A DNA stretch of 64,000 bases from Flavobacteriales bacterium (GCA_021739695.1 JAIPBM010000001.1:186001-250000), one strand, 5' to 3'; shown: positions 37,534 through 45,331, numbered from the stretch's first letter. Translations and numbers: made by a program. Notes: generated from the sequence alone by a model not told the origin.

Positions 37534-37607
37534 TCCTCCTTAGCTCAGCTGGTTAGAGCATCTGACTGTTAATCAGAGGGTCCTTGGTTCGAGCCCAAGA
37601 GGAGGAG
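37534..37607 (+). tRNA. tRNA-Asn (GTT)
   Basis: Cloverleaf with acceptor TCCTCCT / AGGAGGA, D arm GCTC/GAGC, anticodon stem CTGA/TCAG with loop CTGTTAA (anticodon GTT, codons AAC/AAU) and T arm CTTGG/CCAAG. CCA is not encoded. It forms the left border of the accessory region. Confidence 0.96.
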
Positions 37608-37610
37608 CAG

Positions 37611-37637
37611 AAACCCCGCCAATGGCGGGGTTTTTTG
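37611..37637 (+). terminator. terminator of tRNA-Asn
   Basis: AAACCCCGCC / GGCGGGGTTT, a 10-bp stem with a 3-nt loop and a T run, directly after the tRNA. Confidence 0.9.
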
Positions 37638-37665
37638 TTTTCATCCCCTTCCTTTCTGCGCCAAT

Positions 37666-37701
37666 AAAAAACCCCGCTCTGGTTCCGGAACGGGGTTTTT
37701 T
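37666..37701. terminator. bidirectional terminator
   Basis: AAAAAACCCCG / CGGGGTTTTTT, an 11-bp stem with a 14-nt loop; A and T runs on both sides let it work on both strands. It would end the leftward gene at 37769 and back up the tRNA terminator. Confidence 0.8.
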
Positions 37702-37704
37702 CTG

Positions 37705-37758
37705 CTTTCTGAGGTCTGACATCTCACATCTCGTATCTGCTATCTGACATCTGGTATC
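37705..37758. repeat. degenerate ATCTG-type tandem repeat
   Basis: A run of variants of TCTGACATC / TCTCACATC / TCTCGTATC / TCTGCTATC, about 8-10 nt each, between the terminator and the end of the hypothetical gene. Such runs recur near mobile or patchy genes in this phylum. Confidence 0.5.
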
Positions 37759-37768
37759 CGGCAACTCA

Positions 37769-38524
37769 TCAAACAACCACACTCTGAACCACTGTACTCC
37801 ACGAGCTGCTGTTCTCCTCCTTGCTGGCATTTACCCAGCGGAAAAAGGCATAGATCCGCTTCCCGCTATGTTCCTGTCCGAGCGAAGCAATGAAGATGGC
37901 CTTCTTGCTGATCTTGCTGTAAGGACATTCCGCTGCGGTGGTCGGTACTTTCTGAGCACCGGCCGCGGTATCTGATGGAGGCCTCGGGATGGTCGGATCA
38001 GGTATCGGAAAACTCCCCGTATCCTGACCCACGCTCACCAGCGCATAGCGCATCTCCACATGGTCCGCATCAGGGTGCTTGCTGGCACGGTTACCGTCTT
38101 CGGTGGTGCGTACACGGATCTTCACATCACCCCCTTCCATCGGAATGATCTTGGCCAGCGGTGTGGTTTCGATCTTGGTTCTTTCGGTAGGCGCATCGCG
38201 CTCGGATAGGTGCAACGCACCCCTGTCATCGCTTGTAAGGGCAGGCGACACGCTCATCCTCGTCAGCAAAGGGTTGGCAAATTGAATGAAGGCTTTTTTC
38301 TGAAGGTCCTTTTCGGCCGTGATGGTTTTTGTCCGTTTCGAAGCATCCTTATGCTTGGCATAGATAAGCACCCAAGCGTCCCGTCTGCTACTCCATTCGG
38401 TCAGTTCGCCAACCGTCAGGCCAAGACGTTCGCCATTGGTAGGTGTTTCCGCTTCCAGATAATCTGTCGTTGAAGTGATGTAGGAGTCGAAACCCCCGTC
38501 TGATTGATCTATTCTAGTTGGCAT
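37769..38524 (-). CDS. hypothetical protein with C-terminal Ig/FN3-like strand segment
   Basis: 251 residues, no signal peptide. The N-terminal 100 residues are helical (GERLGLTVGELTEWSSRRDAW, quoted in part), followed by a polar region and a C-terminal stretch (KKAIFIASLGQEHSGKRIYA and FFRWVNASKEE) with the text of fibronectin-like strands. I recognise the plan, a helical half with an LGL-T-x-xE-x-x-xW start and a 'GKRIYAFFRWVN...W' end, from hypothetical proteins scattered in Bacteroidota and Verrucomicrobiota genomes; none has a known role to my knowledge. GC is higher than in the flanking cassette. The 21-bp repeat array lies about 180 bp upstream. Confidence 0.75.
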   Translation of the reverse strand: MPTRIDQSDGGFDSYITSTTDYLEAETPTNGERLGLTVGELTEWSSRRDAWVLIYAKHKDASKRTKTITAEKDLQKKAFIQFANPLLTRMSVSPALTSDDRGALHLSERDAPTERTKIETTPLAKIIPMEGGDVKIRVRTTEDGNRASKHPDADHVEMRYALVSVGQDTGSFPIPDPTIPRPPSDTAAGAQKVPTTAAECPYSKISKKAIFIASLGQEHSGKRIYAFFRWVNASKEENSSSWSTVVQSVVV

Positions 38525-38702
38525 TTGTTCTCGTATTTAAACGTGTTTGTAAAAAATGATCTGGGTTCTGAGGCTTCGCCCCTTCATTGAAGCATTCCGC
38601 TGCAACTTCTATGGAGCCCTTACAGAGCAGCGCTTCAAATGGCCCGCGCCCCCAATTACCGGCCAAAAGGAAGACAGGGTCCACCTTCGGGTCAGGAATC
38701 CC
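38525..38702. other. intergenic stretch upstream of the hypothetical gene
   Basis: Between the gene start at 38524 and the repeat array. I see no TAnnTTTG box. A degenerate hint of the 21-bp repeat (ccaccttcgggtcaggaat) lies just before the array. Otherwise nothing recognised. Confidence 0.4.
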
Positions 38703-39067
38703 ATCCCAAGGGAGGAGAAGTAATTCCTTAAGGACGAGATATTATTCCTTAAGGAGGAATCATATTTCCTTAGGGAGGAGAAACAATTCCTTAAGGACGA
38801 GATACTGTTCCTTAAGGAGGAATCATATTTCCTTAAGGACGAGATACTATTCCTTAAGGAGGAATCATTGTTCCTTAAGGAAGAGATGGTATTCCTACAG
38901 GAAGGGTTATTATTCCTTACGGAGGAGATAGCTGGCAACAAAACGAGGACAGCTTCGTTTCTCAGGCAATAAACTGACAGTAAGCCACTTACATTGATGA
39001 TTTTTAAATCCTGTTCTGACCTGTTCATGACCTTTGGCCCTTGGTTTACCCAAATTTCAAAAGGCAT
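38609..39067 (-). CDS. possible heptad-repeat ORF over the 21-bp array (doubtful)
   Basis: An open frame of 152 codons reading the array as SSLRN-x-x heptads (SSLRNND, SSLRNSI, SSLRKYD, SSLRNCF). A competing open frame runs on the plus strand (38587-38931) through the same palindromes. The openness of both is a simple result of the 21-bp period and lack of stop codons in the unit, so neither is proof of a gene. No promoter box is visible before either start. Kept here at low confidence since similar heptad proteins are annotated in some Bacteroidota. Confidence 0.2.
   Translation of the reverse strand: MPFEIWVNQGPKVMNRSEQDLKIINVSGLLSVYCLRNEAVLVLLPAISSVRNNNPSCRNTISSLRNNDSSLRNSISSLRKYDSSLRNSISSLRNCFSSLRKYDSSLRNNISSLRNYFSSLGMGFLTRRWTLSSFWPVIGGAGHLKRCSVRAP
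38703..38933. repeat. 21-bp palindrome-containing tandem repeat array (10-11 units)
   Basis: Units start at 38724, 38745, 38766, 38787, 38808, 38829, 38850, 38871, 38892 and 38913, exactly 21 bp apart, with a degenerate unit at 38703. Each opens with TTCCTTAAGGA, a near-perfect palindrome, followed by about 10 variable bases that alternate between a CGAGATA type and a GGAATCA type, so there is also a 42-bp period. Because 21 is a multiple of three, both strands stay open and would encode heptads (SLRRNHI / SLRTRYY forward; SSLRNSI / SSLRKYD reverse). No cas genes are near and spacers are not unique, so this is not a CRISPR. Confidence 0.9.
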
Positions 39068-39118
39068 TTCGGTTGTTGCAAGCGCTAAATTTTGCGGCCT
39101 ACAGCGGGAATCAGCAAG

Positions 39119-39403
39119 CTATTTCAGTTCTAATTTTCGCGCGAGCAAGAGAAGCCTATAGGCACCGAATGTGCTGTAGGTATTCAGCAGTTTCCGCGCG
39201 TTCTTCAACCGTCTGTTGATGCAGTAAATGCTCACACCTTCTTCTGCGGCAATGTCATCAACCAACTTCTCCATGGCAGAGGCCTCCACGGCCCGAAGCA
39301 TTTCGGGGGTTATCTCACTAAGTTTCTTTGCATCCAGATATACCACGCCTTTGGCAGTGTGTACAAGCAAGGCTTGCTCTTCCGGTGGCGTTGGGGTTGA
39401 CAC
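39119..39403 (-). CDS. small protein with possible LuxR-like helix-turn-helix
   Basis: 94 residues. The first third is a polar lead (ALLVHTAKGVVYLDAKKL), then a helix (TPEMLRAVEASAMEKLVDDI). The last 45 residues, AAEEGVSIYCINRRLKNARK and FGAYRLLLLARKLELK, follow the spacing of a GerE/LuxR C-terminal HTH (short helix, GxS turn, recognition helix, final leucine-rich helix). If so it may bind DNA, for instance the palindromic array 190 bp away or the promoter of the divergent RT gene. This is a weak similarity judged by eye. Confidence 0.5.
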   Translation of the reverse strand: MSTPTPPEEQALLVHTAKGVVYLDAKKLSEITPEMLRAVEASAMEKLVDDIAAEEGVSIYCINRRLKNARKLLNTYSTFGAYRLLLLARKLELK

Positions 39404-39666
39404 GTGTGCGGGTAGAACAACAACACTAAGTTATCTGATCCCCTAAAATGCCACAATACCAAATTGCGGCCATAAATTACAGTTCTAAAAAAGCTCCTGA
39501 AGCGCAGGGGCAAGGTGTTGGAAATGTGGGCGGGGGTTTGTAGTATTGGGAAACTGTAAGAAGGAATATGGCAAGATTACGAATCGGTGAGCTAAACAGC
39601 GTTGAGCATTAATGAAAAATCGTTTTTCAAGACCACAAAAACAACAACCTTTAATTGAATCATCAA
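39404..39666 (+). other. noncoding leader region upstream of the RT gene
   Basis: 263 bp without a credible gene and without a clear TAnnTTTG box. It holds a G-rich patch (gcgcaggggcaaggtgttgg and gggcgggggtttg) and a perfect hairpin TGAAAAA-TCG-TTTTTCA at 39613-39629, ending 37 nt before the RT ATG. RT-based defence loci often carry a noncoding RNA next to the RT, so this region is the natural candidate, but no specific RNA family is recognised. Confidence 0.4.
39613..39629 (+). promoter_or_regulatory. hairpin upstream of the RT gene
   Basis: TGAAAAA and TTTTTCA pair perfectly over 7 bp with a TCG loop. It ends 37 nt before the ATG at 39667. It may be an operator, a weak terminator of a short upstream RNA, or part of a noncoding RNA. 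Confidence 0.45.
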
Positions 39667-41358
39667 ATGACGAAAGACCCAACCACTAGTCGAAGTAATC
39701 TTTCAGAGGTTGTTATTGGTGGCATCACTTACAACCTAGAAATATCCTTAAAACGACTTAAGCAAGATCTTCGAGATGACTGGTTTCCAGATTTCCTAGA
39801 CTTCAAAGACTTATTCGATAACAAGGACTTTTTTCTAAATCAATTAAAAAAGTACACGGGTACAAACGACCTCTACGAACCTGGGAATTCATTACACTTT
39901 GATATTCCAAAACCTGGCTTTACCGTTAGATACTCAAGTGAGACAAATATTGTTGACCGATTAATGTACCAAGCTTGCGTTGACAAACTAGGCCCAGAAC
40001 TTGACTCTATACATTCAGAATCCATTTATTCTCATAGAATAGATACCGACAGAGGTGAGAAATACTTTTTTAGATATCCAGTGGAAGAATGGAATAAGTT
40101 TCTTACCGATGCCAAAATCGAATTAGATAAAAACGAAAATGAGGTATTGCTAATAACCGACCTTTCCAACTACTACGAATCCATAAGTATTAAGGACTTA
40201 ATCACCACTCTGGATTTTCAGATTGATTCCCTCATCAAGAACAAGGACAAGAACAAGGAATTAAAAAAGGTATCCAGTCAAATAAAGAAACTCTTGGATA
40301 GGTGGTGCGAGCCTAATACCAAAAGAGGTATCCCACAGAACCGTGACGCTTCCTCTTTTCTTTCCAATATTTTTTTGAACCCTGTTGATGATAGCATGCT
40401 AAAATCTGGATACAAATATTTCAGGTATATGGATGATATTCGAGTCGTTTGTAAAAATAAGTTTGAGGCCAGAAAAGCATTAAAGCTTTTGGTTAGCGAA
40501 CTGAGAAAAAAAGGACTTAACGTAAACTCGAAAAAGACTGAAATATTAGACTTAAACAACGGTTCACAGCGACTTCTTATAAACGAGGCTCTACAGAAGA
40601 ATGACAAACAAATTGAGCAGATTGAAAACCTTCTAAAATCAAGACAAGCTAGGGGTGTACAAATTGCCATTCCAATGCTAAGAAAAAAAACTATCTCCCT
40701 GATTGAAAATGGCGTGACTCTGGAAAGACATTTTAGGTTTTGTGTGAACCGCCTGGAACGGTTAGTTAGAATACCTGAAATAAGAAATAAGATTGATATC
40801 GATGACATCACGGACGCTGTAATTAACCAACTCATTGACCAGCCGTGGTCTACAGATTCATTTGCTCGATATTTAATTAGTACCCCTCTCTCGGACTACC
40901 ATCTACAGAGAATTGCGAGCTTGCTATTGGATGATGAAAAAAACATTTATGAGTGGCAAGAATATCACATTTGGAGAATTTTAATCAATCACAATTGTAA
41001 GGAGGCTTCATTAATTCTAAAGGCAAGGCATAACTTGGAGCATCGTGCAACAAATCACCCCATTATAGCAGGTTCAACTCTTTACTTATGTTCTCTTGGA
41101 GATGGTAACGACAGGAAACATGTAGCCGACAATTTTCAAAACCTAACCAATTTCTTCGTGCAAAGGACTGCTCTTATTGGTATTAAAGAATTGGATTATA
41201 CAACCATAATTAAAGGTTCAGTGGAAAAATTCATGGACGATTGCCATAAAGGAAGTTATCGGGTACTAAACAAGGATTTTACTGGTGTCTATTCCATACC
41301 ACCTTCAAAATTGAACTTCAAGGATTTTTATGACGAATTGCCAGAATTCATATCATAG
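39667..41358 (+). CDS. reverse transcriptase (defence-type, unassigned group)
   Basis: 563 residues from the ATG at 39667 (a TTG 12 nt upstream is possible). The RT core spans about residues 75-300: IPKPGFTVRYSSETNIVDRL before the fingers, motif A LLITDLSNYYESI with catalytic D165, motif B RGIPQNRDASSFLSNIF (220-236), motif C FRYMDDIRVV with D256 and D257, then motif D with KKGLNVNSKKTEIL. The C-terminal 260 residues are charged and helical with no recognised domain, as in Abi/UG-type RTs. There is no maturase, endonuclease, Cas1 or integrase domain, so it is not a group II intron, CRISPR-RT or retrotransposon. The TAG stop is directly followed by the ATG of a family A polymerase gene, so the two are surely co-expressed. 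The gene is clearly more AT-rich than the host core genes. Function is likely anti-phage defence, inferred from family and context. Confidence 0.9.
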   Translation: MTKDPTTSRSNLSEVVIGGITYNLEISLKRLKQDLRDDWFPDFLDFKDLFDNKDFFLNQLKKYTGTNDLYEPGNSLHFDIPKPGFTVRYSSETNIVDRLMYQACVDKLGPELDSIHSESIYSHRIDTDRGEKYFFRYPVEEWNKFLTDAKIELDKNENEVLLITDLSNYYESISIKDLITTLDFQIDSLIKNKDKNKELKKVSSQIKKLLDRWCEPNTKRGIPQNRDASSFLSNIFLNPVDDSMLKSGYKYFRYMDDIRVVCKNKFEARKALKLLVSELRKKGLNVNSKKTEILDLNNGSQRLLINEALQKNDKQIEQIENLLKSRQARGVQIAIPMLRKKTISLIENGVTLERHFRFCVNRLERLVRIPEIRNKIDIDDITDAVINQLIDQPWSTDSFARYLISTPLSDYHLQRIASLLLDDEKNIYEWQEYHIWRILINHNCKEASLILKARHNLEHRATNHPIIAGSTLYLCSLGDGNDRKHVADNFQNLTNFFVQRTALIGIKELDYTTIIKGSVEKFMDDCHKGSYRVLNKDFTGVYSIPPSKLNFKDFYDELPEFIS

Positions 41359-42948
41359 ATGAAATTATTCTTAGCGCATAGAATTGATATTTACAACCAG
41401 GCCGACTCCTTTTATGTCGGTCTCTTTGAAGATGGGGAATACCGAAAACTCTCTATTGAGGAAATTCGAGATTATCAACATGAAATTATCACTTACAACT
41501 TAAATCATTTACTAGACCATCTTAGAATGGTTTACGAAGGAAACTTACCGATAATAACCGATTTAGGCCAAATAATTAAAATCAACACGGGTAGGTCGAA
41601 GAAAACCTATTCCAAGAAGAAATATCCTTGGATTTTTTGGAACAGAATTCACAGAGACCTAGGGGAAGAAGAATCAAATCGATTGTATTCAATAATTAGG
41701 GAAGGAACGGAAGAGAAACAACTGGTTGAAACCTTGAAAGCCTTAGCAACCAAGGTAAAAAAGTTCTACGAAGTGTCTTTTATTAATCTTAAGGAATTAA
41801 AACAAGAATCCAGATTTAACAATCTAGAAAATGCCATACAACAAGTGCTCAACGAGCGGCAAGTTGAAGGCATACACGTAGATGTCGAGAAGCTTGATGG
41901 TTTGATTACTGAACTGGAAACGAATAAAAATGCACTAGTCAATAGACTGAGATACAAGTATGGAATTATCAACCTAGACTACAAGTACCTCAGACGATTT
42001 CTCATCAAAAAAGGATTCAAACTTTCCAACAAGGATTTCGACCATTTTAATCTTATTAGCTTCCTAAAAAACGAAAAAATTAGTTCGGAGCTCTGTAAAG
42101 ACATCTACATTACCATACGGGTAAAGTCTGACTATGAAAAGCTGAAGCAATACATTATTGAAGAGGGCAATTTAATATTTCCGGTATTTGATTGCATAGG
42201 AACAATTACATCTAGAATCCTAATCAATTACCCACACATTCAGCAGCTAAAACGAGAGAACCGAACAATCTTTAGAGCAAAGGAGGGATATGCCTTGCTT
42301 TACTGTGACTACAATCAATTTGAGCCTGGTATTCTTGCTTCTAACTGTAAAGACGAGGCAATGCTCGATTTGTATAACAGTAGTGACATCTATACAAGTT
42401 TTAGCGAATACATATTTGGAACGAAGGCGTTGCGTAAAGAGGCCAAAGTCTTGTTTCTTTCTTATTTGTATGGAATGTCAAACAAGAAATTAGTGTCCTC
42501 AATCAATCGGGTCATTACATCGAAAGGGTTAACTCAGAATACATCTGCAACGGAATTCTTTTCCAAATTTGAAAAATTGGAGATGTTCAAATTATCAGAA
42601 TATGAAAAAGCAGTTAATCAAGGATATATTCAATCGGAAACTACCCTTCGCAGAAACATCAAAAAAACAAAGGATGGGAAAAAAGGAAAAAAATCAGAAA
42701 CTCGGTTTGTTCTGAGCCAACTAATCCAAGGACAAGCCTCATTCATACTCAAGTCTGCCATACTCGAAGTATCGCAAGACAGTGAAATTGAATTCTTAGT
42801 TCCAATGCATGATGCCGTACTCTATCAAGTTCCGAAAAGTAAGATTGAAGAAAAGAAGGAACATATTGAAACGGTTTTTCTAAAGAATTTTCTGGCTTTA
42901 TGTCCAGATATAAATGCTAAAGTGGATTTCAAGGCATTTGAGGAATAA
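41359..42948 (+). CDS. shortened family A DNA polymerase, partner of the RT
   Basis: 529 residues. The C-terminal part (about 165-529) aligns by eye with the palm, fingers and thumb of E. coli Pol I: a GTITSRILINYPHIQQL segment for TGRLSS...PNLQNIP, motif A LLYCDYNQFEPGILA (D317; the steric-gate Glu is E322), motif B RKEAKVLFLSYLYG (R359, K363, Y371; Leu367 replaces the Phe762 equivalent), R449 and Q457G for Arg841 and Gln849, and motif C VPMHDAVLYQV (H484, D485, but Ala486 where Pol I has Glu883). Both catalytic aspartates remain. The first 130 residues resemble a degenerate 3'-5' exonuclease fold (ITYNLNHLLDHL, IITDLGQI) without its acidic catalytic set. There is no 5' nuclease. It starts on the base after the RT stop. 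It cannot be the housekeeping polA. Confidence 0.88.
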   Translation: MKLFLAHRIDIYNQADSFYVGLFEDGEYRKLSIEEIRDYQHEIITYNLNHLLDHLRMVYEGNLPIITDLGQIIKINTGRSKKTYSKKKYPWIFWNRIHRDLGEEESNRLYSIIREGTEEKQLVETLKALATKVKKFYEVSFINLKELKQESRFNNLENAIQQVLNERQVEGIHVDVEKLDGLITELETNKNALVNRLRYKYGIINLDYKYLRRFLIKKGFKLSNKDFDHFNLISFLKNEKISSELCKDIYITIRVKSDYEKLKQYIIEEGNLIFPVFDCIGTITSRILINYPHIQQLKRENRTIFRAKEGYALLYCDYNQFEPGILASNCKDEAMLDLYNSSDIYTSFSEYIFGTKALRKEAKVLFLSYLYGMSNKKLVSSINRVITSKGLTQNTSATEFFSKFEKLEMFKLSEYEKAVNQGYIQSETTLRRNIKKTKDGKKGKKSETRFVLSQLIQGQASFILKSAILEVSQDSEIEFLVPMHDAVLYQVPKSKIEEKKEHIETVFLKNFLALCPDINAKVDFKAFEE

Positions 42949-43003
42949 GCTCCCCCAAGCTCGCGCAAGAATTCCGTAGGATGTCTTGTGTGGCATGAAA
43001 CAC

Positions 43004-43030
43004 GATCAGTATCCTGACTGATCTTCTTTT
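43004..43030 (+). terminator. candidate terminator of the RT-polymerase cassette
   Basis: GATCAGT / ACTGATC (7-bp stem, loop atcctg) followed by TTCTTTT, 55 nt past the polymerase stop. Confidence 0.5.
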
Positions 43031-43143
43031 ATGCAAGCGTTTTTGCAACACCCATCCTCAAGCCCGCTAGCTCGCGTTCAATGTCATTAATTAAGCCGTT
43101 TGAGAGATTGCTTGGAGTTACGTCCTTTCAGGCCGTGAGCTCC

Positions 43144-43208
43144 GCTTCGGTCGGTTCGTTGCTCACAATGACGCTCAGAGCATCGTCATTACGAGGAACG
43201 ACCGAAGC
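43144..43208. repeat. palindromic dispersed repeat (MITE/REP-like)
   Basis: Arms GCTTCGGTCGGTTCGTTGCT...CAATGAC (43144-43172) and GTCATTACGAGGAACGACCG...AAGC (43185-43208) are imperfect inverted copies around a 12-bp loop. The words GTCATT-CGAGGAACGA-GAAGC recur in short repeats of many bacterial genomes. Confidence 0.65.
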
Positions 43209-43394
43209 AACCGACCAACGGGAGTTCATCGAGGGAAGAGATAATCTCTATTCAACACGGCCGATCTCTTAACTTGATGACGTTGAGACTGCGTTTGCAA
43301 AGCCTGCCCACAAGCAATAGTTACAGAATAAGCACCCGGTACAACTTAGCGAAGCGTTTTAACCGGAGATAAACGCTCGCTATGGCGTCATGGT

Positions 43395-44306
43395 TTATTG
43401 GATAACGATTTTTCTGGTTATCACCGCTGAATCGTTGGATAGCCTGAGCAGATAGATGCCCTTGTCTTGCAGTTCTATTTCCGTCTGACGAATGAATTCC
43501 TTTTCCATTACTACCCTTCCCCGAATGTCAATGACCTGAAGCAACAGTGCCGTTTGCAGATCGCATTCAACCTTTACGAGTCTTTCGGCTGGATTCGGAT
43601 AAACATCTGTTCTGATCGATGGATGCTGAAGATCACCCACATCCATGGCATCGCCTTCCATGCAACGGATAGATTTACCTGCTTCCTTATTATCGTTCGA
43701 ATAGCCCGCATATCCACTAGCAGAGACCAAGAGATAGGAGCCGGGATTGTAAATGTCGATGGCAGTGGCTGTCCACCATGTGCCGGCAAGACCGATCAGG
43801 TCAAACACCCCATAGGCGCCCCGTTGTCCGCCCGGTAGTGCTGTGAACCCTGATTCGTTGGTTGCTCCCGTATTAGGAACGGCCCAATGGGCTGTGCCTG
43901 CTTCTTTCAGTGCGTTTCCTGCGGCAACACCACCGTAGAGGTCCATCAGTTCTGCCCATTCTGCATCCGTTGGAACATGCCATCCTGTCGGACATAGCTT
44001 CTGAGTGTTCACCGTATACCAGTTGTACATGGCGCCATAAGTGTCTGCATTGGCAGCCTCATCATTGCCGTACCAGCAGCGGCCTGGCGTGGTCAGAGCT
44101 GGCCAGTCTGTATAGTCACTCACCAAAGGAACGGGTGTGCCATCATTCAATCTGGTGGTTTTCAGATTCTCGGCCATCCACACCTGCGTGCCTATGACAA
44201 CCGTATTGTAGACATTCCCATCAATGTCTGTTACCTGGCCCATGGTTTCTGTTGAAAACTGGGTGGCAAACATTAAAACCATCAACAAGCGCAGATTTTT
44301 CATCAT
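43395..44306 (-). CDS. FISUMP-domain secreted protein with T9SS sorting domain
   Basis: 303 residues. A signal peptide ends near TMGQ (residue 24). The central domain (about 25-225) is the 'Fibrobacter succinogenes major paralogous' type: DIDGNVYNTVVIGTQVWMAE at the start, LCPTGWHVPTDAEWAELMD, and SIRCMEG at the end. The last 75 residues (VYPNPAERLVKVEC ... KGIYLLRL) are a type A T9SS sorting domain. FISUMP proteins are surface lipoproteins or secreted proteins of unknown ligand, with a C-type-lectin-like fold. It is transcribed toward the RT-polymerase cassette and lacks a visible promoter box. A second possible ATG is one codon downstream. Confidence 0.93.
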   Translation of the reverse strand: MMKNLRLLMVLMFATQFSTETMGQVTDIDGNVYNTVVIGTQVWMAENLKTTRLNDGTPVPLVSDYTDWPALTTPGRCWYGNDEAANADTYGAMYNWYTVNTQKLCPTGWHVPTDAEWAELMDLYGGVAAGNALKEAGTAHWAVPNTGATNESGFTALPGGQRGAYGVFDLIGLAGTWWTATAIDIYNPGSYLLVSASGYAGYSNDNKEAGKSIRCMEGDAMDVGDLQHPSIRTDVYPNPAERLVKVECDLQTALLLQVIDIRGRVVMEKEFIRQTEIELQDKGIYLLRLSNDSAVITRKIVIQ

Positions 44307-44560
44307 TCATTACTAAAACAGAACTCTACTCGTCTGGCTTTTCGAATCCGCCCCATTTTTTCGCTGGTCACTGGTCTCCACCTTGCTTTTATAGTGGTTC
44401 AACTCCACTGGCAGGAACAACACTGTCCATTTCTAAAGAACCACCAAAGAGGTTTATCGACAGCTGTTGTTTCACATTGCGAAGGAATATCACGCTACGG
44501 GGATATGAGTGAGAGCGGTCATTCGTCCCTATGATTTTCCTCATCACAGAGGTACCCCCG

Positions 44561-44620
44561 CACACAAACGGGTGCTCCGCAGGCGCTGCGCTCAGCTTGT
44601 CGAAGCGGATCACCCGTGTG
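44561..44620. repeat. imperfect inverted repeat element
   Basis: CACAAACGGGTGCTCCGC (44563-44580) and GCGGATCACCCGTGTG (44605-44620) pair imperfectly around gctgcgctcagcttgtcgaa-type loop sequence. Confidence 0.5.
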
Positions 44621-44785
44621 GAACTAAGTATGATAGGTTTACCTTCGGTGATAACGCTTCGCTAAGTTTCTGCCCAAGGCAAAGAGATTGCTTGGCTAAG
44701 TTGTAACTGATCTCAGAGCCTTGGATCATAGGCTCTATCCGCAATTGCTAAAGACCCTGCAAGAGCAAAACCGGAAAATAGATGC

Positions 44786-44824
44786 TTAACAGCTGTTGAT
44801 CGATCAACACCGATGGGCTGTTAA
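44786..44824. repeat. nested palindromes
   Basis: Outer arms TTAACAGC (44786-44793) and GCTGTTAA (44817-44824); immediately inside lies GTTGATCGATCAAC (44795-44808), a perfect 14-bp palindrome. Could be an operator or the remnant end of an element. Confidence 0.5.
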
Positions 44825-44890
44825 TTTAACCGATCACCGTCCGAAAGTCGGGATTTCTAGTTTTTATCCAGTTCAATTCTGTACAAATAA

Positions 44891-44922
44891 AAAGCCCGTA
44901 TGAATCAGATCATACGGGCTTT
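44891..44922. terminator. strong bidirectional terminator
   Basis: AAAGCCCGTATGA / TCATACGGGCTTT, a perfect 13-bp stem with a 6-nt loop. The minus-strand tail TTTTTATTTG fits termination of the MORN-like gene. Confidence 0.88.
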
Positions 44923-44941
44923 CGTTCTTATTCAGAAACAA

Positions 44942-45331
44942 TTACTTGTCCTTGACGGCAAACTCCGTCTGTTTCACGTATCGGTTGGCATTGATCACTT
45001 CGCCATTCGCATATTTCATTTCGATGTAAGCACTATCATACTGATCCCAAACGCGGAACTCGCCATGACGTTTGCCGTTCTGGTAACTGATCTCGGCAGT
45101 TTTTGAGCCATCTTCTGCAAAAGATTCCCATTTACCTTCAGGAACATCATTCTTGTAGTAGCCCGTTTCTTTCACCGCTCCACTTTCGTAATAATTGGTC
45201 ACTGCTACCAATTCGCCCTTTTGAACGTATTCGCTTTTCACAGAACCATTTTCATAATTGGTCTTTACCGTACTTTGCGCAAAGCAAGTAGAACCTGCCA
45301 AAACCACTAAACTCAACATCAACGCTTTCAT
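44942..45331 (-). CDS. secreted MORN-variant (YwqK-like) repeat protein
   Basis: 129 residues, signal peptide ending CFAQ (residue 19). The mature part has four to five repeats of the type YYESGAVKETGYYKN / YENGSVKSEYVQKGE / QNGKRHGEFRVWD, the MORN-variant motif of 'YwqK family antitoxin' annotations. Such proteins are widespread secreted or periplasmic repeat proteins in Bacteroidota; an antitoxin role is not implied here. It ends in a strong terminator and has a -7 box 22 nt upstream. Confidence 0.9.
   Translation of the reverse strand: MKALMLSLVVLAGSTCFAQSTVKTNYENGSVKSEYVQKGELVAVTNYYESGAVKETGYYKNDVPEGKWESFAEDGSKTAEISYQNGKRHGEFRVWDQYDSAYIEMKYANGEVINANRYVKQTEFAVKDK

What the first reader, a model, noticed from the sequence alone, without database searches (positions are those of the whole stretch)
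39667..42948. Two-polymerase cassette: reverse transcriptase directly followed by a shortened family A DNA polymerase
Seen in the sequence: an RT with motifs A (D165), B and C (YMDD) whose stop codon abuts the ATG of a protein with Pol I motifs A, B and C. Both are AT-rich against the core genes and sit in a repeat-rich accessory region. Known: many lone bacterial RTs of the Abi/UG (DRT) class defend against phage, often with ncRNA or a partner enzyme. Inference: the RT may make a first DNA strand on an RNA template and the family A enzyme could copy, extend or displace it, or the pair may act as a toxic polymerase on phage sensing. I cannot match the RT to a named DRT group, so novelty is open.
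Basis: partly seen in the sequence, partly recalled or inferred. Interest (0 to 1): 0.88.

Follow-up and report, generated by a model that had tools for sequence, protein, structure and literature searches.

The report
UG9 reverse transcriptase–PolA defence pair
A bacterium carries a rare, mobile two-gene unit pairing a reverse transcriptase of a known antiviral-type group (UG9) with a stripped-down DNA polymerase I; the pairing was already catalogued, its function seems untested, and comparative evidence here suggests the two enzymes work together to make double-stranded DNA during phage defence.

Summary
An RT (39667-41358) with an intact D165/D256/D257 triad abuts a family A polymerase (41359-42948) whose key polymerase residues are kept. 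Both are AT-rich (about 36% GC against 44-50%) and sit in a variable region beside tRNA-Asn. The claim that the RT matches no named group is wrong: it is a clear UG9 RT (PADLOC, 2e-152) and the polymerase is its catalogued partner (RTasPolA, 1e-108). The pairing is published (94% of UG9 RTs, myRT 2021). I found no functional study of UG9 in the held papers.

New here: 12 of 12 distinct UG9 loci across phyla, plasmids and viral contigs have the pair. In 297 Bacteroidota genomes this PolA type occurs only in the three genomes with UG9. RT and PolA diverge together (r = 0.99). Conserved DNA ends at the two genes, with no sign of a flanking ncRNA. The RT model resembles template-independent DRT4, DRT6 and AbiK. 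The PolA is Klenow-like, without 5' nuclease or intact exonuclease site.

Best mechanism (inferred): the RT makes a first strand without a dedicated RNA template and the PolA copies it into non-genomic dsDNA. Verdict: a new member of a known, uncharacterised kind.

The parts
39667..41358 (+). UG9-group reverse transcriptase (563 aa): RT core about 70-300, all-helical C-terminal domain about 328-563
   Evidence: PADLOC RT_UG9_small 2e-152; Pfam RVT_1; D165/D256/D257 invariant in 12 homologues; AF2 model and Foldseek hits to DRT4/DRT6/AbiK
41359..42948 (+). RT-associated family A DNA polymerase (RTasPolA, 529 aa): vestigial exonuclease-like N-terminus (about 1-75) plus Klenow-type polymerase domain
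   Evidence: PADLOC RTasPolA 1.2e-108; DNA_pol_A 2.8e-31; AF2 pLDDT 85.6 with Foldseek hits to Bst/Taq Pol I over the whole length; motif mapping
41356..41361 (+). Gene junction TAG|ATG, in frame, no gap; equivalent junctions are 0-3 nt gaps or 8-nt overlaps in all 12 homologous loci
43004..43023 (.). Terminator-like hairpin 56 nt after the PolA stop, likely end of the two-gene operon
   Evidence: consensus match only; 5 found against 2.9 expected in shuffles
37534..37608 (+). tRNA-Asn marking the left edge of the variable region that holds the pair
   Evidence: colinearity with congeners stops at 37608-37616
37617..44941 (.). Variable segment: differs from the same site in a congener, where colinearity resumes at 44942
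   Evidence: L120

Best explanation
This is a UG9-PolA module: a horizontally moved two-gene unit of the UG/Abi (defence-associated RT) family. Shown here: the genes are inseparable, co-inherited and tightly juxtaposed, the residues for DNA synthesis are conserved in both, and no third gene or flanking ncRNA is shared between loci. Inferred: the RT, built like the template-independent DRT4, DRT6 and AbiK enzymes, starts a DNA strand without a dedicated RNA template, probably from one of its own residues. The exonuclease-deficient Klenow-like partner then uses that strand as template and makes the second strand, giving non-genomic duplex DNA. When a phage disturbs the cell, this product accumulates or is protected and stops phage growth, probably through abortive infection, as duplex repeat DNA does in DRT3. 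Identity as UG9-PolA is about 0.97 likely, a defence role about 0.8, and the second-strand mechanism about 0.45 (the score given here).
For: UG9 and RTasPolA profile matches. PolA immediately downstream in 12/12 distinct UG9 loci from Bacteroidota, a Balneola MAG, an Obscuribacterales MAG, alpha/betaproteobacterial plasmids and two viral contigs. Reciprocal: the PolA type occurs in the same 3 of 297 Bacteroidota genomes and no others. RT and PolA pairwise identities correlate at r = 0.99, 0 of 5000 permutations as high, with matching main clades. An 8-nt gene overlap is kept in 8 loci across phyla. Close relatives (86-90% RT identity) share no DNA outside the two genes; window relatives at 65-72% share essentially none; the window's upstream RNA folds no better than shuffles, z = 0.42; no strong synonymous constraint inside the genes. 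RT fold: full-length matches to DRT4/UG15, AbiK and DRT6; the helical C-terminal domain is typical of Class 1, and Class 1 enzymes studied so far are template-independent (PMC13174585). PolA keeps R286, D317, Q320, E322, R359, K363, Y371, Q457, H484 and D485, invariant in 12. Precedent: DRT3 needs two polymerase activities to make duplex DNA (PMC13174585). Candidate defence genes (restriction-modification, Fic, RhuM, PDC families) flank several loci.
Against: No assay of any UG9 system was found. The RT model is of moderate quality (pLDDT 72; TM-scores mostly 0.4-0.5, best 0.54/0.60 to DRT6), and DRT9, which uses an ncRNA template, also appears among the matches. An RNA template acting in trans, lying further than 700-900 nt away, or overlapping the coding sequence is not excluded. 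The PolA has two active-site changes fixed in the family (Klenow E883 to Ala, F762 to Leu), so it may not be an ordinary copying enzyme. Nearby genes in the window itself are not recognised defence genes.
Confidence: 0.45

Rival explanations
1. RNA-templated first strand: the RT copies a cellular, phage or as yet unseen small RNA, and the PolA makes the second strand.
For: All RT catalytic residues are intact. The best sequence hits in the PDB are RNA-templated RTs (RT-Cas1, group II intron RTs). DRT2, DRT3a, DRT9 and DRT10 use cis ncRNAs.
Against: No conserved sequence or unusual folding flanks the genes and there is little synonymous constraint inside them. The full-length fold is closest to template-independent enzymes.
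Confidence: 0.25
2. The RT and PolA form one complex in which the PolA is mainly a regulator, sensor or structural partner (for example holding the RT inactive or binding phage DNA) rather than a second-strand polymerase.
For: Tight juxtaposition or overlap and co-divergence suggest a fixed complex. Family-wide changes in the PolA active site (E883 to Ala, F762 to Leu) and a vestigial exonuclease-like domain.
Against: The two catalytic metal-binding Asp, the steric-gate Glu and the O-helix Arg, Lys and Tyr are invariant in all 12, which is not expected if polymerisation were dispensable.
Confidence: 0.2
3. A retroelement: the pair makes double-stranded cDNA for its own mobility.
For: Found on plasmids and viral contigs and in distant phyla, with host-incongruent relatedness.
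Against: No integrase, terminal repeats, template RNA or conserved boundary outside the two genes. Abi-type C-terminal helical domain rather than a maturase or endonuclease.
Confidence: 0.05
4. A housekeeping or repair function (lesion bypass or end repair), not defence.
For: Family A polymerases act in repair; the window's own neighbours are not recognised defence genes.
Against: Rare (about 1% of Bacteroidota, 1 of 292 in the sampled phylum of L006), patchy and mobile; absent from all eight searched congeners; the related RTs with known function are antiphage.
Confidence: 0.05

Closest known systems
UG9 RT plus PolA-like partner (myRT 2021 class UG9-PRK14975; PADLOC DRT entries RT_UG9_small and RTasPolA)
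   Same: Same RT group, same partner family, same gene order and adjacency; profile scores are decisive.
   Different: No real difference; the window is a new Bacteroidota member. Its genes abut with no overlap, where most other loci found here overlap by 8 nt.
DRT3 (UG3 + UG8 + ncRNA)
   Same: Two DNA-synthesising enzymes encoded side by side; one has the Class 1 helical architecture; a model for duplex product formation.
   Different: DRT3 uses two RTs and an ncRNA; here the second enzyme is a family A polymerase and no ncRNA was found.
DRT7 (UG10 RT-primase-polymerase fusion)
   Same: A UG RT joined to a second polymerase of a different fold; reported duplex-like product.
   Different: DRT7 is one fused protein with a PrimPol domain; here two separate proteins, the second of the Pol I fold.
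DRT4 (UG15), DRT6 (UG12), AbiK
   Same: RT plus C-terminal helical domain; best full-length fold matches.
   Different: They act as single genes without a partner polymerase; identity is only about 13-16%.
Bacterial DNA polymerase I large fragment (Klenow, Bst)
   Same: Same fold over the whole length and same core catalytic residues.
   Different: Shorter N-terminal domain without the full exonuclease residue set; motif C HDE is HDA; O-helix Phe is Leu; no 5' nuclease domain.

Membership tests
UG9 reverse transcriptase | Best and near full-length match to the UG9 profile, well above other UG groups | tested here: met
   RT_UG9_small 506.8 bits over 17-559; next group UG21 235.9 bits
UG9 reverse transcriptase | Adjacent PolA-family gene | tested here: met
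   RTasPolA 362 bits at 41359; 12 of 12 loci
UG/Abi Class 1 (template-independent) RTs | C-terminal alpha-helical repeat domain | tested here: met
   Model is all-helical from 328 to the end; full-length Foldseek matches to DRT4, AbiK, DRT6. Formal class assignment of UG9 could not be looked up.
UG/Abi Class 1 (template-independent) RTs | Untemplated, protein-primed DNA synthesis | not testable with these tools
   Biochemical property. Y70 is an invariant Tyr just before the RT core, but its role is unknown.
Class 2 DRT (DRT2, DRT9, DRT10) | Conserved cis-encoded structured ncRNA next to the RT | tested here: not met
   No conserved flank within 700-900 nt among close relatives; upstream fold z = 0.42. 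More distant or overlapping RNAs not excluded.
DRT3 | Two RTs (UG3 and UG8) and an ncRNA | tested here: not met
   Second enzyme is DNA_pol_A, not an RT
DRT7 / UG10 | RT fused to a primase-polymerase domain | tested here: not met
   UG10 profiles score only 59-63 bits and no fusion is present
Family A DNA polymerase | Catalytic Asp of motifs A and C, O-helix Arg/Lys/Tyr | tested here: met
   D317, D485, R359, K363, Y371 invariant in 12; mapped onto the host Pol I
Family A DNA polymerase with proofreading (3'-5' exonuclease) | Four catalytic acidic residues of the exonuclease site | tested here: not met
   No conserved acidic residue at the exo III position, and the exo II position is not conserved; only one Asp (D10, not fully invariant) may correspond. 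Alignment of this region is weak.
Anti-phage defence system | Protects cells against phage | not testable with these tools
   Only indirect evidence: family, mobility, some defence-like neighbours

The most novel reading that the evidence does not exclude
UG9-PolA is a self-contained machine for making double-stranded DNA of non-genomic sequence: an untemplated reverse transcriptase writes the first strand and a dedicated, exonuclease-deficient family A polymerase copies it, with no RNA template at all. That would be a third route to defensive duplex DNA beside DRT3 and DRT7.
Probability: 0.35. Interest if true: 0.78.

Novelty: new member of a known kind. Interest (0 to 1): 0.45.

Why it matters
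Several defence RTs are now known to act by making unusual DNA rather than by copying genes. UG9 almost always travels with an ordinary-looking DNA polymerase, and its product is unknown. The comparative evidence here turns it into a sharp test: does it make duplex DNA without an RNA template, and is the polymerase the second-strand maker? If so, it would show how bacteria borrow a Pol I-type enzyme for immunity.

Tried and rejected
1) Conserved ncRNA: blastn of 700-900 nt flanks in two clades of close relatives, RNA folding of the upstream region and a synonymous-site scan gave no convincing signal. The top synonymous windows (z up to 3.4, about 100 overlapping windows, non-independent pairs) were judged not meaningful; two clades peak in roughly the same RT region (residues about 89-117), which I leave as a weak lead. 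2) Rfam: no RNA family at the locus. 3) Stop-codon readthrough fusion: RT and PolA are in one frame in the window, L003 and L004, but the stop differs (TAG, TAA, TAA) and L005 and the overlapping loci are out of frame, so rejected. 4) A wider partner set: neighbours were scanned; no third gene is shared between loci. 5) E. coli genomes: no match at DNA level. 6) Phage records: only weak RT-domain hits, no UG9; two IMG/VR contigs do carry the pair. 7) The main classification paper of UG/Abi RTs (NAR 2022) was not in the library, so formal class membership of UG9, and any test of it there, could not be checked.

Full report
Observation. The window encodes, on the + strand, a 563-aa reverse transcriptase (39667-41358) whose TAG stop is followed without a gap by the ATG of a 529-aa family A DNA polymerase (41359-42948). 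RT motifs A (D165), B (GIPQNRDASSF) and C (YMDD) are intact. Pfam finds RVT_1 (1.4e-15) and DNA_pol_A (2.8e-31). GC is about 36% over the pair against 44-50% around it.

Identity. PADLOC matches the RT to RT_UG9_small (2e-152, 17-559 of 563 aa), far above UG21 (236 bits), and the polymerase to RTasPolA (1.2e-108). NCBIfam reaches no curated cut-off for either protein. The pairing is known: myRT reports a PRK14975 (PolA-type) domain beside 94% of UG9 RTs in complete genomes (PMC8934634). UG9 dates from a 2014 phylogeny that placed it near the Abi lineage and saw it only in Proteobacteria (PMC4244168). In nine literature searches I found no functional study of UG9; PADLOC gives it a UG name rather than a Drt number, and a 2026 overview of DRT1-9 does not list it (PMC13213688). 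The main 2022 classification paper was not held.

Linkage. I collected twelve distinct UG9 loci: the window, L003 (Balneola MAG), L004 (Paludibacter MAG), L005 (Bacteroidetes MAG), L006 (Obscuribacterales MAG), L106 and L105 (two further genomes), plasmids of Dinoroseobacter, Falsirhodobacter and Paraburkholderia (L037-L039), and two IMG/VR contigs (L040, L041). In all twelve the PolA gene follows directly on the same strand. The junction is an 8-nt overlap in eight loci from distant phyla and a 0-3 nt gap in the four of the window's clade. In a sample of 297 Bacteroidota genomes the UG9-type PolA occurs in exactly the three genomes that have UG9, each time adjacent to it. RT and PolA pairwise identities correlate at r = 0.99 (0 of 5000 permutations reach it) and both trees show the same main clades. 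Some deep branches are long and unsure. The two genes therefore travel and evolve as one unit.

Mobility. UG9 is rare: 3 of 297 Bacteroidota, 1 of 292 in the phylum of L006, 2 of 393 in the order of L005; each count includes the genome the search was centred on. It is absent from the eight other genomes searched in the window's genus. In a congener, colinearity runs up to tRNA-Asn (window 37616) and resumes at 44942, with different genes between; in three others it stops at 37608. The pair thus sits in a variable segment beside a tRNA gene. Relatedness crosses phyla (the window's nearest relative found is a Balneola MAG at 72% RT identity). Other loci have candidate defence neighbours: a type IIG/ISP restriction enzyme and a DEDDh exonuclease (L041), RhuM and Fic proteins (L005), PDC-S11 and PDC-S45 families (L006), and a methyltransferase and HigA (L038). 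No neighbour is shared, so the minimal unit appears to be two genes.

No sign of an ncRNA. Proteobacterial relatives with 86-90% RT identity share no DNA outside the two genes within 700 nt; their similarity begins near the RT start. The two closest plasmid loci (96% RT identity) share 224 nt upstream and 58 nt downstream, which recent ancestry explains. The window and its 65-72% relatives share essentially no flank. The window's 263-nt upstream region folds no better than shuffles (z = 0.42), and four-fold sites show no strong constraint inside either gene. This argues against, but does not exclude, a cis ncRNA like those of DRT2, DRT3, DRT9 and DRT10.

RT structure. The AlphaFold2 model (pLDDT 72, nine sequences) has an RT core and an all-helical C-terminal half. 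Foldseek's first hits over the whole length are DRT4/UG15 and AbiK; DRT6 gives the best TM-scores (0.54/0.60); AbiA and Abi-P2 also match. Class 1 enzymes have such a helical repeat domain and, as far as studied, make DNA without a nucleic acid template (PMC13174585). DRT9 also matches, with lower TM-scores. Sequence profiles alone find RNA-templated RTs first, through the shared catalytic core.

PolA structure. The model is good (pLDDT 85.6, pTM 0.86) and matches the Pol I large fragment of Bst and Taq over its length. Mapped onto the host's own Pol I, the residues equivalent to Klenow R668, D705, Q708, E710, R754, K758, Y766, Q849, H881 and D882 are kept (Klenow numbering is from general knowledge). 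E883 is Ala and F762 is Leu throughout the family. There is no 5' nuclease domain, and the short exonuclease-like N-terminus lacks the full catalytic set, although alignment there is weak. It reads as a DNA-synthesising, non-proofreading enzyme with family-specific active-site changes.

Mechanism. Most likely the RT starts and extends a strand without a dedicated template and the PolA turns it into a duplex. Duplex product as effector has a precedent in DRT3, where two RT activities are needed, and a reported parallel in DRT7, an RT joined to a primase-polymerase. Shown: linkage, co-inheritance, conserved catalytic residues, architecture, no detected ncRNA. Inferred: untemplated synthesis, protein priming, second-strand synthesis, toxicity and defence. 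Rivals are RNA templating in trans and a regulatory PolA.

Verdict. The finding is real and correctly described, but the pairing was already catalogued. It is a new Bacteroidota member of a known and functionally open kind; the value lies in the evidence that the pair is an indivisible, apparently RNA-free two-polymerase unit, which makes a clear experiment possible.

Noticed in passing
38609-39067 (array 38711-38928): A 21-nt tandem repeat array (10 copies, palindromic TTCCTTAAGGAA cores); read on the minus strand it gives a 152-aa ORF with a seven-residue SSLRN-type repeat. Role unknown.
   Followed up: partly
L128:1-4078 (own genome, contig C44:1500-5577): A second reverse transcriptase in the same genome (560 aa, GVPQGG and FCDD motifs), preceded by a gene that resembles an AAA ATPase and followed by a gene of unknown type; it may be another defence-type cluster.
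   Followed up: partly
37534-37616: tRNA-Asn is the left edge of a segment whose content differs between congeners (L120 to L124), so it looks like an integration or variation hotspot.
   Followed up: partly
L041:3984-4865: In one viral contig a DEDDh exonuclease gene with a weak BRCT match lies 57 nt upstream of the UG9 RT, directly after a type IIG/ISP restriction enzyme.
   Followed up: no
39775-39792 (RT residues 37-42): An acidic N-terminal signature DDWxxD (D37, D38, W39, D42) is invariant in all 12 UG9 RTs; its role is unknown and it could mark a partner or metal-binding site.
   Followed up: no
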